In this document: positions 1-35,215 of the stretch, piece after piece | How the letters are laid out: each line of letters starts with the position of its first letter | Numbering within the stretch: position 1 is the stretch's first letter | From: a virus | Length of the DNA stretch: 64,000 bases | Strand: one strand, 5' to 3' | IMG/VR virus record: IMGVR_UViG_3300017989_000073 | Coordinates: 1 to 64,000 of that record | Notes under the pieces: generated by a model | The model's input: the letters and a program-made list of their open reading frames with translations, nothing else | Database searches by the model: none | Told to the model about the DNA's origin: nothing | Position numbers and translations under genes: made by a program

Positions 1-95
1 CACTGCGTGAGAGCGCGGTGTTCTTGCCTCGTCTCGAACGAGGAACTCATGTGTGTGGAGGAGAACCGTTTTTTTTCGGCTCAGCGTGGCACAGG
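1..95 (+). promoter_or_regulatory. Possible CRISPR leader
   Basis: This is the sequence upstream of the first CRISPR repeat. The two repeats nearest to it are identical and intact while the distal ones are degenerate, which is the usual polarity of an array whose leader lies on this side. It contains a run of eight T at about 69-76. No confident promoter was found. The window begins here, so the leader may be cut off. Confidence 0.35.
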
Positions 96-364
96 GGTTC
101 CCCCACACGCGTGGGGATGGACCGTCCTCCGAGGGCCTGTACATCATCGGCGGTGAGGTTCCCCCACACGCGTGGGGATGGACCCGTCGCGCTCCTCGAA
201 GTTCCGCACGGGCGTGTGGTTCTCCCGCACGCGTGAGGATGGACCGGTGCTGTGAGAGCGGAGTCTGCTACAGTGCCCGGTTCCCCGCACGCGTGAGGCG
301 TGAGGATGGACCAGGGCGATCTTCTCCGCTTCAGGCGGTTCTCCCGCACGCGCGAGGATGGACC
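96..364 (+). CRISPR. Type I-E-like CRISPR mini-array, 5 repeats and 4 spacers
   Basis: Repeats of 28 bp lie at 96-123, 157-184, 218-245, 279-312 and 337-364. Spacers are 124-156, 185-217 and 246-278 (33 nt each) and 313-336 (24 nt). The repeat begins GGTTCCCCCACACGCG and ends GGGGATGGACC. It folds into a six-pair stem with an ACGC loop, as in type I-E repeats. Repeats 1 and 2 are identical; repeat 3 differs at three positions; repeat 4 carries a 7-nt tandem duplication of CGTGAGG and a 1-nt deletion (34 nt); repeat 5 differs at one more position than repeat 3. Decay toward the right places the leader on the left and transcription on +. No cas1, cas2, cas3 or Cascade gene is in the window, so crRNA maturation would need host proteins. 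Spacer 1 matches a coding stretch of the phage's own helicase gene at 6009-6041 with 26 of 33 identities, which implies a related phage as the target. Confidence 0.88.
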
Positions 365-797
365 TGTTTGATGGTGTTCTCGTTTCTGGGTAGCGTATAT
401 TAGACGCAGATGTCGCACGTACGAGGACTAAAAAACTTCACCGACAGGCGAACCCAATACCGATCTCCTAGACCTCCGGTTCGGCTTACTCACAACGTTC
501 GCGCCCGAACTCAGCTCAAGTCGAGAGTGTTTCGCCCTGCTCTTCCTCCGAGCTACGGGGAGTGGAACCCCGAGGCCTTGTGCTGGTTGAGGTGGTTGGA
601 GGAGTTCAAGAAGGAGGGCCGACCCGTGGGAAGGTTTGCGGAGCCGCACCGCCGCAGCCGACCTCGGGCATCGATCGACGTCTCGAGTACCTGGAGCGCT
701 GGAACGAACCTTGTGTACTTCTATGTGACTCCGCCCACGACTTCTACCTCTACATGCGGGTATTGACCATCCCCGTGGTATGTGGTAGAAGGGGCGG
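365..797. other. Region without a confident gene
   Basis: About 430 bp between the CRISPR array and the first clear gene. A + frame at 410-766 and an overlapping + frame at 562-801 both read open. The stretch around 550-640 of the first frame (rich in Trp, Glu and Lys) and around 670-780 of the second look protein-like. A short gene, or one broken by a frameshift near 650-680, is possible. Neither frame shows a convincing ribosome binding site or a known domain, so no gene is called. Confidence 0.4.
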
Positions 798-1127
798 ATG
801 AAAACGCTTCGCGGGCTCAGCAAAGCAAACACGATCCGACTGGTCGAAATCGAACACTACGTGAAAACAGGCACTCGCCCGGACGGAATGCACGTCACGG
901 ACGAATGGGTAGACGATTCGATTGCGTTCCTTGCCCGCGAGTTGCGACCGACACTAGAAGCTTGGGCCTCCATCAGTGACGACGAGGAACTGAGCAGCTC
1001 GGTCGCTCGCGAGGCTCGCAAGGTCTACCGCCTGTGGAGTAGACACGCTGACCAAGACAACCTAGACCAAGCGTTTGAAGCCCTGGGGAAGGCGATAGAG
1101 GCGGCGGAGAAGGTTCCAGGTGAGTAG
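798..1127 (+). CDS. Hypothetical helical protein, 109 aa
   Basis: The ATG start is preceded by a purine-rich site (AGAAGGGG) at a good distance. The product is an acidic, mostly helical protein of 109 residues with no cysteine, signal peptide or membrane segment. I do not recognise the family. It is the first clear gene after the CRISPR array and is followed by a hairpin-rich gap before the lysis-type gene at 1249. A shared operon with that gene is possible but not shown. Confidence 0.65.
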   Translation: MKTLRGLSKANTIRLVEIEHYVKTGTRPDGMHVTDEWVDDSIAFLARELRPTLEAWASISDDEELSSSVAREARKVYRLWSRHADQDNLDQAFEALGKAIEAAEKVPGE

Positions 1128-5247: not shown

Positions 5248-6624
5248 GTGGATCTGAATACGATCTTTGTTGCCAGTGTGCTGGCTGAGGGACTCCCGGC
5301 TGTTCGCCGGGCGGCTGAGAAGGGGGTCGATGGCGACTGCCTGAAGGGTAAGGGGTTGAGGGCGTGGGTGTTCGTTCTCGACTACGTGAGTAAGTACCAG
5401 ACCACCCCCGATGCCGCGATGGTTGAGAGCAAGACGGGGGTTATGCTTCCGTCGCCTCCAGCTAATGTTCCTGCTGAGGTGTGGATCGACGAGGTCCTGA
5501 ACGATCGGTTGCACAATGCTGTCGGGACTCAGCTCGGACGAATCGATGCACTCTACAACGCCAGTCAGCCTCATGCTGCTTACGCTCAGTTCGAGGATAG
5601 CGTTCGGGAGCTGAGGCGCCTCGGGATAGGAGTTTCCAAGACGGTCAGCCTGCCTTCGCTACTGCCGGAATTTTTGGCGTACTACGAACGTCTGGAGGCA
5701 GGTGAGACGGGAATTCTTACGCCGTGGCCGACGGTGAATGAGGCTACGCTCGGGTTCTGGCCGGAAGACTTTGTGCTGTACGTTGCGCGACTCGGGGTGG
5801 GGAAGAGCTGGACTCTTATCATCCTCGCTGATCATGCCTGGGCGGTTCAGAAGCGGCGGGTGCTGTTCGTCACGACTGAGATGGGCCGGCAGAAAATCCT
5901 CCAGCGCTGGGTGTCGGTGCACAAGAAGTACCCCTACAACGAGCTTCGGCGTGCGCGGCTTGGTAGCTTCGTCAAGCAGAAGATGATGGAGTGGATTGAT
6001 GAGGTGGTATCGGCGGAGGGTCTGTACATCATCGGAGGCGACTTCGATTTTCGCGTTGAGTCGCTGGAGGCGGCTATCGAGGAATCCGAGCCGGACATCG
6101 TTTTCCTCGACGGTGCGTACCTACTCAAGGTGCCTGGTGATGGGAGGACCGAGCGCGCGGCCAATTCGTTCGATGAGCTGAAGCGGATGGCCAAGCGGAA
6201 CCATATACCTCTGGTCGCCTCCACCCAGTTCAACCGCGAGGTGAAGGGGAGCAAGCTTTCTTCGGCGGGTCCTGAGAAGATCGCTCTGTCGGATGCTGCT
6301 GGCTGGAATGCGGACCTCATATTTGGTTTGATGCGGACTGATGACATGGTACGCGACAAGCGGATGGTCCAGCTCCCTTTGAAGTTCCGGGAAGGGTTGG
6401 GTGAAGAGGTTGAGACCCATTGGGACTTCGACACCATGAACTTCGATGAGTTGCCGAAGGGGGCTATGGCGGCGTTAGGGGCTTCTGGTGCAGGAGGTGC
6501 GGTTGGATCGTCGGGCGGGGGTGCGGGCTCGGGAGCGGCTCCGGGTTCGGGACCTGACCCGGACCCCTATGGTGCGGGCCTGCTGTTTGGCGGCAGTGAC
6601 GACACGAAAGACGTGCCTTTCTGA
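5248..6624 (+). CDS. Replicative DnaB-like helicase (T4 gp41-like)
   Basis: The product has 458 residues. The GTG start follows GGGAG. The N-terminal 130 residues are helical, as in DnaB/gp41 N-domains. The RecA-type core has Walker A L-G-V-G-K-S-W-T at about 183-190, an F-V-T-T-E-M-G strand with the usual catalytic glutamate, and Walker B I-V-F-L-D-G at about 285. An S-T-Q-F-N-R segment near 325 matches DnaB motif 3. The C-terminus is a Gly/Ala/Ser/Pro-rich linker ending in D-D-T-K-D-V-P-F, resembling an SSB tip. Loader upstream and primase downstream complete the module. The codons around 6009-6041 correspond to CRISPR spacer 1 of the array at 96-364. Confidence 0.92.
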   Translation: MDLNTIFVASVLAEGLPAVRRAAEKGVDGDCLKGKGLRAWVFVLDYVSKYQTTPDAAMVESKTGVMLPSPPANVPAEVWIDEVLNDRLHNAVGTQLGRIDALYNASQPHAAYAQFEDSVRELRRLGIGVSKTVSLPSLLPEFLAYYERLEAGETGILTPWPTVNEATLGFWPEDFVLYVARLGVGKSWTLIILADHAWAVQKRRVLFVTTEMGRQKILQRWVSVHKKYPYNELRRARLGSFVKQKMMEWIDEVVSAEGLYIIGGDFDFRVESLEAAIEESEPDIVFLDGAYLLKVPGDGRTERAANSFDELKRMAKRNHIPLVASTQFNREVKGSKLSSAGPEKIALSDAAGWNADLIFGLMRTDDMVRDKRMVQLPLKFREGLGEEVETHWDFDTMNFDELPKGAMAALGASGAGGAVGSSGGGAGSGAAPGSGPDPDPYGAGLLFGGSDDTKDVPF

Positions 6625-28104: not shown

Positions 28105-28776
28105 ATGGCACGGACTGGGCGAAAGCGGCCGAAGCCCCCTGGCCGCGACACACGATTCAGAAAATTGCGAGCGCTGGCGTGCTTCCAGGAGGTCTATGAC
28201 CGCATCTGTGCGGGGTGGCCTCTGGCGCAGGTGGCGCGGTTCATCCAAGAGGAGCGCAAGGAGTACACATCGATCTCTCATCATGGACTGGAGCAGCAGC
28301 TGGCGGAGTTCCGGAAGAACATGCCTCCGGGGGACCTGGTCCAGAAGAGATTTCCGGACGTCTTCGACCAGGCGAAGGAGAAGGTCGAAGCCAGCATCGA
28401 CGAGTTGGAGGAGCTGGAGGAGCTGTACAGAATCCAAATGCACCGTATCGGGATCGATTTCAGCACAGAGAAAGGTATCAAGAAGCTCATGCCGTCGATG
28501 ACAGCGGAGATCCGAGAGGCTCGTAACTTGCTCAAGGACATGGCTGAGCTGAAGATGGAATTGGGAATCCTGGGTCGGGCTCCGAAGGGGGTCGATGTCA
28601 ATGTCGGCGTGGAAGTCGAGGCGAACCTGTCGAACGAGGTGCTGGCTAAATTCGGCGATGGTGCTGTTCAGGAGGTGCTTCAGGACGCCGAGTCACGGCG
28701 GAAGGTGATGGGTATTGTGGAGCGCTTCATGAAGCTGCCTGCGCCATCCTCGTCCTCTTCTGAGGGTTCCAACTAG
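28105..28776 (+). CDS. Terminase small subunit, putative
   Basis: The 223-residue form starts at ATG 28105, 7 nt after a possible -10 box; in-frame ATGs at 28093 and 28096 are alternatives, and none has a ribosome binding site. A basic N-terminus (R-K-R-P-K-P-P-G-R) leads to helices with an HTH-like pattern near 35-60, then a long Glu/Leu-rich coiled coil (about 95-150). That arrangement of DNA-binding end plus oligomerising helices is typical of small terminases, which select DNA for packaging. The large terminase gene follows after 8 nt. Confidence 0.72.
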   Translation: MARTGRKRPKPPGRDTRFRKLRALACFQEVYDRICAGWPLAQVARFIQEERKEYTSISHHGLEQQLAEFRKNMPPGDLVQKRFPDVFDQAKEKVEASIDELEELEELYRIQMHRIGIDFSTEKGIKKLMPSMTAEIREARNLLKDMAELKMELGILGRAPKGVDVNVGVEVEANLSNEVLAKFGDGAVQEVLQDAESRRKVMGIVERFMKLPAPSSSSSEGSN

Positions 28777-28784
28777 GCTGCATC

Positions 28785-30803
28785 ATGATCGAGTATCAGG
28801 AAGGCCACTGGCGATCTATCCGTACGCCTCTGGAGAAGACTGGGCTCCTGGAAAAGGACCTGGAGACCCTTACACCGGACGAGCGGAAGACGATCGAACT
28901 CATCCTGGCGGAGCTGAAGGACCCGAAGAGCGACGCCGCTCTTCTCCAAACGATCGGAAATCTCGAGTGGGTTCGCACGCCCGTGGACATGAAAACGTTC
29001 TGCATGGACCCCTACTACCTGGGGAACACGTGCGACAACCTGTATTCGATCTTGCTGGATGACTTGGCCACGCTGTTTGACGAGGGGTACCGGGAGGCGG
29101 TGCTCACGGGAGCCATCGGGTGGGGGAAAACCTTCGCCGCGTCCATTGGTATTTGCCGTCTTCTTTACATCCTCTCTTGCATGCGCGACCCTCACCGGTC
29201 GTTCGGTATCGCGGCGAACTCGAACATCTCGATTGTGTGCCTCTCGGTCAACGAAATTTTGGCCACCAAGGTCGCCTACGAAAACATTGCCACGAAGATC
29301 GAGGCTAGCCCGTACTTTCAGGAACACTTTCCGTTCGAGAAGACCAAGAAGGAACTCCGGTTCCCGAAGAAGGTGTGGGTGGCGGCACGAGCGAGTAATG
29401 ACGGGTCTGTGCTCGGTCTCAACGTGATCGGTGGCCTTTTGGATGAGACAAACTTTATGCCGAAGGCGACGAAGGGGCAGGACCCACGGTTCAACCTTCA
29501 AGACCGGGCTGAGGTGCTGTACAACGCTATGCAGCGCCGGATGAAGTCCAGGTTCGAGCGCAAGGGCCGGCTGCCGGGCATCCTGTTCGTTGTTTCCTCG
29601 AAACAAACCAACGACGATTTCACGGCCAAGCGAATCAAGGAGTCAACGCTAGACCCTACGGTGTTCGTCCGGGACTACGCGCTCTGGGACGTCAAGCCGG
29701 ACATCTACTACTCCGGCGAGTGGTTCCACACCGTTGTGGGTAACGAGCAGGCACCGAGTCGGATCATTGAGGACAATGAGGACATCGACGAGGTTCGCGC
29801 CACACTTCCCGAGGACTGCGTCATCATTGAGGTGCCTGAGGACTTCCGGGGAGATTTCGAGAACGACCTGGAAGGGGCGATCCGCGACTTGGCTGGCGTG
29901 GCTACGGTGTCTGTGAGCCCGTACATCCAGCGCCGGACGAAAATTATCGATGCGGTTCGCTCGGACATGAAGCACCCGTTCAGTGTGGAGGTCTACGATC
30001 CCTCCCAACCAGGTACGTTTTACTGGCACAAAATGCTCCGACCCGCGAATGATGCGGAAGGGGGAATGCGCCCGATTCTGAGCCCGTACGCTCCACGCCA
30101 CATCCACATCGACCCGTCATTGTCTGGAGACGCGACGGGTTTTGCGATGGGGCACGTTTCGGGGTGGAGAGAGGTCGTACGCAGGGACGACGAGGGGAAC
30201 AAGTATCCGGAGCGAGCCCCTGAGATCACGATTGACGTGGTTTTGCGGATTGTCCCTCCGGTGGGCGGGGAGATCATTCTTGGGGACATTCGGAAGCTTG
30301 TGTACCAGCTCGGTCGCCACGGTTACATGATCACGTGCGTGTCGATCGACTCGTGGAACTCTGCTGATGCTATTCAGAAATTGAACCAGAGAGGGTTCAA
30401 CGCTGTCCAGCTCTCGATCGATCGAACGATGGGGCCGTACGACCTGTTGAAGTCGGCGCTCTATGAAGATCGGCTGTACTACTACGACTACGAGCCCCTG
30501 CTTCAGGAGCTGAGGGAACTCGAACACGACCGGGTAAAACGGAAGGTTGACCACCCGCTGCGCGGGCGGAAGGACACCTCGGACGCTGTGGCCGGGGTTG
30601 TGTGGACACTGACGGAAAACTCGTCGTCTATTCCTTTGGAGATGCTAAAGAGCGTTCCAGACCATGGGGACGCGTGGATGCGCGAGCACCAGCAGGCCGC
30701 GCTAGCTCGGAGCTACGGGAGCGAGGATGTGGCGGATATAAGCGAAGACCTTACGGTTTTGCCTCCATTTCTGATAGGCTCAGGATTCGGGCAGGGCGAC
30801 TGA
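28785..30803 (+). CDS. Terminase large subunit
   Basis: The product has 672 residues. The ATPase domain has Walker A T-G-A-I-G-W-G-K-T (about 107-115) and a Walker B-like V-I-G-G-L-L-D-E (about 216-223). The C-terminal nuclease shows H-I-D-P-S-L-S-G-D (about 444-452), an S-I-D-S-W-N segment near 523 and D-T-S-D-A-V-A-G near 597, consistent with the RNase H-like acidic triad. The phrase R-T-P-V-D-M-K-T-F ... D-P-Y-Y-L-G near 65-82 is a common N-terminal terminase signature. It drives headful DNA packaging through the portal. Confidence 0.95.
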   Translation: MIEYQEGHWRSIRTPLEKTGLLEKDLETLTPDERKTIELILAELKDPKSDAALLQTIGNLEWVRTPVDMKTFCMDPYYLGNTCDNLYSILLDDLATLFDEGYREAVLTGAIGWGKTFAASIGICRLLYILSCMRDPHRSFGIAANSNISIVCLSVNEILATKVAYENIATKIEASPYFQEHFPFEKTKKELRFPKKVWVAARASNDGSVLGLNVIGGLLDETNFMPKATKGQDPRFNLQDRAEVLYNAMQRRMKSRFERKGRLPGILFVVSSKQTNDDFTAKRIKESTLDPTVFVRDYALWDVKPDIYYSGEWFHTVVGNEQAPSRIIEDNEDIDEVRATLPEDCVIIEVPEDFRGDFENDLEGAIRDLAGVATVSVSPYIQRRTKIIDAVRSDMKHPFSVEVYDPSQPGTFYWHKMLRPANDAEGGMRPILSPYAPRHIHIDPSLSGDATGFAMGHVSGWREVVRRDDEGNKYPERAPEITIDVVLRIVPPVGGEIILGDIRKLVYQLGRHGYMITCVSIDSWNSADAIQKLNQRGFNAVQLSIDRTMGPYDLLKSALYEDRLYYYDYEPLLQELRELEHDRVKRKVDHPLRGRKDTSDAVAGVVWTLTENSSSIPLEMLKSVPDHGDAWMREHQQAALARSYGSEDVADISEDLTVLPPFLIGSGFGQGD

Positions 30804-34312: not shown

Positions 34313-35215
34313 GTGTCGGCCAATATGATCGCTCGTTCTGAAAAACTCCTGCCGGGTAGCGAACTCCGGAGGCTACGGTCCGGGAGCTACGAGGAGAAGA
34401 TCGAGGAAGCGGCAGTGATCGTTCGGCTGTTGCTAGGTGAGACCCCCTTCCAGGTGGTGGCCACTCGGGAGGACGGGGCGATCGTTTATTCCGATGGTCG
34501 GTTTCTCCGGATGGTTTTGAGCGAGTCGGGACCCGTCCTACGGGATTTTGATGCCGAGGTGTTCACTCCAGGGAACGTGCGGAGTTTTGTGGAGCGCGAG
34601 GCGACGAGGGTAGTGGACTTGTTTTTGGGTGGTTCGGTGAAGCGAGCTGTAGGGCTGCTAGAAATGCTCGTTCCGCTGGCTGCGTTTCCGAATGACGACG
34701 TTTCTCGGGTCTCGGCAGTCGTTTTCTCTCCTCGCTTGTGGCGACGGGTGTTGGAGGCTCGCCGCGAATTCGTGGTTCGATTCTTGGCGGAGTCCTCGCT
34801 GGCTGGCGAAGGCGGCCAGTTGCACCCGAAGTTCGGGAAGTTGTATGATGAGTCGATCGCATTGCCTACGCAGCACGAGTGTGACTGCGACGAGGATCAA
34901 GTGATCGAGGATTTGCGGATCGTGCTCAACAGGCTGGGGAGTCTCCGGGACGAGGTTAGCGAGTCGCTGGAATCAGTGGCCGGGCTACTCTCGAACCCAG
35001 ATGACGAGGTAACGGCCATGTTCGCGCAGTTCGCTGGGGATTTGCTGAGCGACCTGCGTTCGCTACACGAGACGGCTTCCAAGGCTGCAGAGATGATGGA
35101 CGATGTCCGTTCTCGTGGTAAACTCTGCGACACAATCGTCGAGGGACTGCGTGACCGCGAGGTTGCGAGTCGCTTCGCCGTCGTGGTGGCCAATCGGATG
35201 ATTGAGGCCAACTAG
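34313..35215 (+). CDS. Hypothetical head-region protein, 300 aa
   Basis: The GTG at 34313 has AGGAAG upstream; an ATG at 34325 is the alternative. The product is helical and acidic in its second half, with a cluster H-E-C-D-C-D-E-D near 188-195. It sits between portal and the acidic protein at 35226 and overlaps neither by much. It may be a structural or prohead-core protein. No family recognised. Confidence 0.7.
   Translation: MSANMIARSEKLLPGSELRRLRSGSYEEKIEEAAVIVRLLLGETPFQVVATREDGAIVYSDGRFLRMVLSESGPVLRDFDAEVFTPGNVRSFVEREATRVVDLFLGGSVKRAVGLLEMLVPLAAFPNDDVSRVSAVVFSPRLWRRVLEARREFVVRFLAESSLAGEGGQLHPKFGKLYDESIALPTQHECDCDEDQVIEDLRIVLNRLGSLRDEVSESLESVAGLLSNPDDEVTAMFAQFAGDLLSDLRSLHETASKAAEMMDDVRSRGKLCDTIVEGLRDREVASRFAVVVANRMIEAN

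What the first reader, a model, noticed from the sequence alone, without database searches (positions are those of the whole stretch)
96..364. Phage-borne CRISPR mini-array whose first spacer matches the phage's own helicase gene with silent differences
Spacer 1 (124-156) aligns without gaps to the helicase coding strand at 6009-6041: 26 of 33 bases match. In the helicase reading frame six of the seven differences fall at third codon positions, and five of the seven are silent; the other two change one Ser codon to Ala. The translated core E-G-L-Y-I-I-G-G is intact. Random matches do not show this pattern, so the spacer most likely derives from the same gene in a related phage. Differences cluster in the first eight bases, the PAM-proximal seed for this orientation, which would protect the phage from self-targeting. 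Known precedents are mini-arrays in archaeal viruses and huge phages that target competitors using host Cas proteins.
Basis: partly seen in the sequence, partly recalled or inferred. Interest (0 to 1): 0.95.

Follow-up and report, generated by a model that had tools for sequence, protein, structure and literature searches.

The report
Phage CRISPR mini-array against related phages
A large uncultured phage appears to carry a short CRISPR array without any cas genes, in which at least one guide comes from another family member's version of the phage's own replication-helicase gene; this fits a known way in which viruses borrow host immunity to shut out relatives.

Summary
The array is real: five 28-nt type I-E-like repeats (one carries a 7-nt duplication) and four spacers at 96-364, period 61. 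Spacer 1 matches the phage's own DnaB-type helicase at 26/33. None of 4000 random 33-mers and none of 75 real type I-E-like host spacers did as well in this genome. Its best match lies at the homologous codons in 14 of 15 helicase relatives, and every spacer-versus-own difference occurs in some relative. New: spacer 4 also resembles the same gene (restricted p=0.006). Spacer 2 may match a PTH2 gene (weak); spacer 3 has no match. No exact protospacer was found in IMG/VR or INPHARED. Phage-homologous DNA starts at most 46 bp after the last repeat, but the array lies in the first 364 bases of a partial contig, so a chimeric contig end is not excluded. No Cas6e is encoded by it or six relatives. 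The exact host repeat was not found; similar repeats sit beside a complete type I-E operon elsewhere. Best reading: a virus-borne mini-array that uses host Cascade against related phages. This is a known kind in a new phage lineage.

The parts
1..95 (+). putative leader, cut off by the contig start; ends in CAGG directly before repeat 1
   Evidence: the same CAGG precedes the first repeat of host arrays L109 and L105; no sigma-70 consensus promoter found
96..123 (+). repeat 1, GGTTCCCCCACACGCGTGGGGATGGACC
   Evidence: hairpin -15.6 kcal/mol, z -2.8
124..156 (+). spacer 1 (33 nt), allele of the family's DnaB-like helicase gene
157..184 (+). repeat 2, identical to repeat 1
185..217 (+). spacer 2 (33 nt), possible match to the PTH2 gene of relative G002 (25/33, in frame VALLEVPHG vs IVLLEVPDG); weak
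218..245 (+). repeat 3, GGTTCTCCCGCACGCGTGAGGATGGACC (three substitutions vs repeat 1, weaker stem)
246..278 (+). spacer 3 (33 nt), no target found
279..312 (+). repeat 4, degenerate (34 nt: one base lost, 7-nt tandem duplication GCGTGAG)
313..336 (+). spacer 4 (24 nt, shortened); reverse complement encodes PEAEKIAL, resembling the same helicase gene on the opposite strand
   Evidence: p=0.006 restricted to helicase genes
337..364 (+). repeat 5, GGTTCTCCCGCACGCGCGAGGATGGACC
410..766 (+). first phage ORF after the array; residues 1-38 are 63% identical to a syntenic frame in relative G001
798..1127 (+). conserved syntenic phage gene (54-61% identity in four relatives)
5248..6624 (+). DnaB-like replicative helicase gene (PF03796, E 3e-18), the gene family matched by spacers 1 and 4
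6009..6041 (+). own near-match of spacer 1 (26/33), 5' flank GTGGT
6264..6287 (-). own near-match of spacer 4 (17/24); homologous sites in relatives reach 19/24

Best explanation
A virus-borne mini-CRISPR array without cas genes. During infection it is transcribed, the host's type I-E Cas6e processes it and host Cascade/Cas3 loads the guides. The guides then attack replication genes, first of all the DnaB-like helicase, of related phages that enter or share the same cell. The carrier escapes because its own helicase allele differs in the seed and lacks a recognised PAM. Shown: the array, spacer 1's origin in the helicase family, no Cas6e in the phage or six relatives, syntenic phage DNA next to the array. 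Inferred: transcription, host Cas use, interference, the exact target, and that the array is truly on the phage chromosome.
For: Period 61 with 28/33 architecture, identical to a 75-spacer host array of the same repeat class. Similar repeat beside a complete type I-E operon in a Verrucomicrobia MAG. Spacer 1: 26/33 to own gene, 0/4000 null, 0/75 real host spacers, best hit at the homologous site in 14 of 15 helicase loci, third-position bias p=0.0025, all seven differences present in relatives. Spacer 4: same gene, opposite strand, in-frame EKIAL motif, p=0.006. No Cas6e in G000-G006. Phage homology 46 bp from the last repeat, E 3e-11, and synteny from there on. The literature describes this class: most mini-array spacers hit viruses related to the carrier (PMC11656645; PMC6858448; PMC7162821).
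Against: The array sits at the very end of a partial contig, with only 95 bp upstream. No other viral contig has the repeat. No exact protospacer was found in any collection searched. No host genome with the exact repeat was found. Three of five repeats are weakened or degenerate and spacer 4 is shortened, which points to partial decay. The bases after the repeats (G, C, G, A) do not show one fixed PAM-derived base.
Confidence: 0.6

Rival explanations
1. Contig-end chimera: bases 1-364 are the end of a bacterial type I-E array joined by mis-assembly to a phage contig. The spacers are then ordinary host immunity against this phage family.
For: Array in the first 364 bases of a partial record; no other viral contig has such a repeat; CAGG leader end as in host arrays; a host array would also be expected to carry spacers against the phages it meets.
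Against: Phage-homologous, syntenic DNA begins at most 46 bp after the last repeat, and no shared sequence at the joint explains a false join. Degenerate inner repeats (3, 4) are unusual for an active host array. No host genome held carries the exact repeat.
Confidence: 0.2
2. RNA anti-CRISPR: the transcript acts mainly as a decoy. Its repeats, several with weakened stems, titrate host Cas6e and Cascade, and the spacers are incidental.
For: Repeat mimics in phages are an established kind (PMC11656645); repeats 3-5 diverge from repeats 1-2 while still folding.
Against: Known RNA anti-CRISPRs are single repeat units. Here three spacers keep the exact 33-nt length and two point to one phage gene, which a decoy would not need.
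Confidence: 0.08
3. Dead relic: the array was acquired by recombination with a host array and is now decaying without function.
For: Three of five repeats altered, a 7-nt duplication, a 24-nt spacer; no close protospacer found.
Against: Repeats 1 and 2 at the presumed leader side are identical and repeat 1 folds well, and spacer 1 keeps full length, as expected of a recent acquisition.
Confidence: 0.12

Closest known systems
Mini-CRISPR arrays of Saccharolobus portogloboviruses SPV1/SPV2 (Medvedeva 2019, PMC6858448)
   Same: no cas genes, leader side present, spacers against close relatives, carrier not matched perfectly
   Different: archaeal non-lytic virus with 1-2 spacers and tracked targets; here a bacterial myovirus, four spacers, type I-E-like repeats, no exact target known
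CRISPR arrays of huge phages without interference genes (Al-Shayeb 2020, PMC7162821)
   Same: compact array (median six repeats), host-like repeats, spacers against core genes of other phages
   Different: those have targets with 0-3 mismatches and, in some cases, a matched host repeat; neither is available here
[quoted passage not shown]
   Same: cas-less repeat-spacer units whose spacers match related phages
   Different: usually one or two spacers and repeats identical to the host's; here four spacers and mixed repeat variants, and a possible leader

Membership tests
virus-borne mini-CRISPR array | two or more CRISPR repeats separated by unique spacers | tested here: met
   five repeats, four spacers
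virus-borne mini-CRISPR array | located in a viral genome | tested here: inconclusive
   myovirus genes and synteny throughout; phage homology from 410 on; but the array is at the contig end
virus-borne mini-CRISPR array | no cas genes of its own | tested here: met
   Cas6e family PF08798 absent in G000 and six relatives, including the 184.7-kb G002; other cas families not searched as such, none among the proteins scanned; part of this genome unseen
virus-borne mini-CRISPR array | spacers match viruses related to the carrier | tested here: met
   spacer 1 strong, spacer 4 moderate, spacer 2 weak; family level only, no exact protospacer
virus-borne mini-CRISPR array | repeats identical or nearly so to those of the host | tested here: inconclusive
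   no exact repeat in genomes of 84,980 species; nearest chromosomal copies 2 mismatches from repeat 1 in an Acidobacteria MAG; host unknown
virus-borne mini-CRISPR array | guides active against the target phage through host Cas proteins | not testable with these tools
   needs experiment
type I-E CRISPR array | 28-29 nt repeat with hairpin and 32-33 nt spacers, period 61 | tested here: met
   same architecture in L108 and in the I-E-linked array L105
type I-E CRISPR array | PAM next to the protospacer | tested here: inconclusive
   no true protospacer known; homologous sites show varied flanks
RNA anti-CRISPR (single repeat unit) | solitary repeat without a functional spacer | tested here: not met
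   five repeats, spacers of 33 nt with phage-gene origin

The most novel reading that the evidence does not exclude
A bacterial myovirus lineage carries an array whose guides repeatedly come from one gene, the replicative helicase, as diverged alleles of its own copy. The array then works as a kin-recognition device that kills relatives above a set divergence and spares its own kind, and it drives divergence of that gene.
Probability: 0.15. Interest if true: 0.75.

Novelty: new member of a known kind. Interest (0 to 1): 0.45.

Why it matters
Virus-borne mini-arrays are known, but well-documented cases in large bacterial phages without cas genes are limited. Here the guide's origin can be read from sequence: it is an allele of the carrier's own helicase, with the differences concentrated in the seed. 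If confirmed, it makes CRISPR-based exclusion between close phage relatives testable in bacteria, with a named gene as the target.

Tried and rejected
Chance match for spacer 1: rejected (0/4000 and 0/75). Spacer 2 against own gene 34313-35215 (22/33, in frame GNVRSFVERE vs TPVRNFEERD): rejected, because the best matches in relatives do not fall at that site. Spacer 3: no target anywhere. Degenerate spacer 4 pattern in IMG/VR gave 15 contigs, none encoding this helicase, so these are treated as chance. Host by repeat: strict pattern in genome contigs zero; looser pattern gave five loci in Acidobacteria, Alphaproteobacteria, Verrucomicrobia and a chance hit in a Xanthobacter gene; searches in 396 genomes of the phylum and 120 of the order of the Acidobacteria MAG found a few 1-2 mismatch copies of a degenerate pattern, none exact. 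Host spacers of array L108 against the phage family: best 25/33, not above chance. CRISPR-like arrays in the six relatives and in nine further loci: none. The plasmid search used two repeats joined together and only showed that similar repeats exist in Thermus and others. Sigma-70 promoter: none. Rfam: nothing above threshold. End repeats of the record: none found.

Full report
Setting. The window is bases 1-64000 of a 109,107-base IMG/VR record. Its genes are those of a large myovirus: tail sheath, major head protein, portal, tape measure, DNA polymerase, primase, DnaB-like helicase, TubZ-like tubulin. No close relative exists in INPHARED, but six IMG/VR contigs share the helicase at 60-69% identity and long synteny. 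The longest, G002 (184,744 b), covers this record as 113.9-184 kb followed by 0-50.5 kb, so the window's record is a fragment that probably lacks about 63 kb or more (inference).

The array. Five repeats lie at 96-364 with start-to-start spacing 61, 61, 61 and 58. Repeats 1 and 2 are identical (GGTTCCCCCACACGCGTGGGGATGGACC) and fold into a 6-bp stem with a 4-nt loop, extended by outer pairs (-15.6 kcal/mol, z -2.8). Repeats 3 and 5 carry the same three stem substitutions (5 has one more), and repeat 4 has a 7-nt tandem duplication and a lost base. Spacers 1-3 are 33 nt; spacer 4 is 24 nt. The 28+33 layout equals that of a 75-spacer array in a bacterial genome of the same repeat class (L108: 75 of 75 spacers are 33 nt). 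A similar repeat lies beside a complete type I-E operon (cas3, cse1, cse2, cas7, cas5, cas6e, cas1) in a Verrucomicrobia MAG. The 95-bp left flank ends in CAGG, as do the leaders of arrays L105 and L109, and the degenerate copies lie to the right, so the leader side is probably left (inference). Since new repeats are copied from the leader-side repeat, the identity of repeats 1 and 2 fits spacer 1 being the newest (established CRISPR biology; inference here).

Spacer 1 is an allele of the helicase. It matches 6009-6041 at 26/33. The same search with 4000 GC-matched 33-mers from unrelated DNA never exceeded 25, and 75 real host spacers never exceeded 24. Six of seven differences are third codon positions (p=0.0025). 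In 15 helicase loci from IMG/VR (six of them the contigs above; the rest at about 42-61% identity), the best match to spacer 1 within the whole 8-16 kb locus falls at the homologous codons in 14. Spacer 1 is about as close to those sites (21-26 of 33) as the phage's own gene is (20-27), closer in some (26 versus 22 for L078), and each of its seven differences from the own gene occurs in at least one relative (permutation p=0.02). This is the pattern of an independent family member, not of a chance match to one gene. No sampled relative is the exact source: a degenerate scan of IMG/VR returned only the known relative L078's contig, and INPHARED has no near-perfect protospacer.

Other spacers. 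Spacer 4, on the opposite strand, reads PEAEKIAL where the helicases read AGPEKIAL or AGAEKIAL, 255 bp downstream of the spacer 1 site. Against helicase genes alone its best score (19/24) has p=0.006; genome-wide it would not stand out. Spacer 2's best match is 25/33, in frame, in the PTH2 gene of G002 (PTH2 confirmed for the homologous gene of this phage by PF01981); 4 of 250 random 33-mers do as well, so this is suggestive only. Spacer 3 has no match. Two spacers pointing to one gene fits the reported tendency of phage mini-arrays to hit neighbouring genes of related viruses but not the carrier itself (PMC6858448).

Is the array on the phage? Translated similarity to the syntenic stretch of G001 and G003 starts at 410 (63% over 38 codons, E 3e-11), 46 bp after repeat 5, and synteny follows. 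In the relatives this place holds the 5' part of a small metalloprotease gene. So either the array has replaced that part, or a false join lies within about 46 bp. I cannot exclude the latter: the array is at the contig end, no other viral contig has the repeat, and the same spacers would make sense in a host array.

Host. No genome held carries the exact repeat. The nearest chromosomal copies, the closest two mismatches from repeat 1 in a small array of 61-nt period, are in an Acidobacteria MAG that lacks a detectable Cas6e. The host stays unknown.

Mechanism. The best-supported account is guide supply to a host type I-E system. The phage record has no Cas6e, and neither do six relatives, so processing and interference would be the host's. 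The target would be a co-infecting relative whose helicase matches spacer 1. The carrier's own allele has mismatches at spacer positions 1, 4, 5 and 7 and the flank GTGGT, which by established type I-E rules (seed positions 1-5, 7, 8; AAG-like PAM; from my own knowledge of the E. coli system) should prevent cleavage. Such a partial match could still provoke primed adaptation against the carrier, a cost worth testing.

Verdict. The observation and the inference about spacer 1's origin hold. The system belongs to a known kind (PMC6858448, PMC7162821, PMC11656645). What is new is the lineage and the reading of a guide as an allele of the carrier's own helicase. The main open risk is the contig end.

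Noticed in passing
window 365-830 vs G001 28107-28830 and G002 113150 ff: In relatives this place holds a small membrane-anchored HExxH metalloprotease gene. In this phage its 5' part is absent, the array sits there, and an ORF in another frame (MSHVRGLKNF...) overlaps the conserved stretch.
   Followed up: partly
G000 105540-105692 (L016:5540-5692): Two tRNA genes overlapping the first part of the PTH2 ORF; ARAGORN reads one with a four-base anticodon (ctcg), where relative G002 has tRNA-Gln(ttg).
   Followed up: no
G000 100429-101751 and 107101-108012: TubZ-like tubulin and a ParB-HTH protein, suggesting a segregation or phage-spindle function.
   Followed up: no
L046:5285-5435 (Acidobacteria MAG), L050:4704-4731: Short or solitary type I-E-like repeats in bacterial genomes without detectable Cas6e, close in sequence to the phage repeats.
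   Followed up: partly
window 55-68: Inverted, degenerate copy of the repeat start (86% complementary to 336-349) inside the presumed leader.
   Followed up: no
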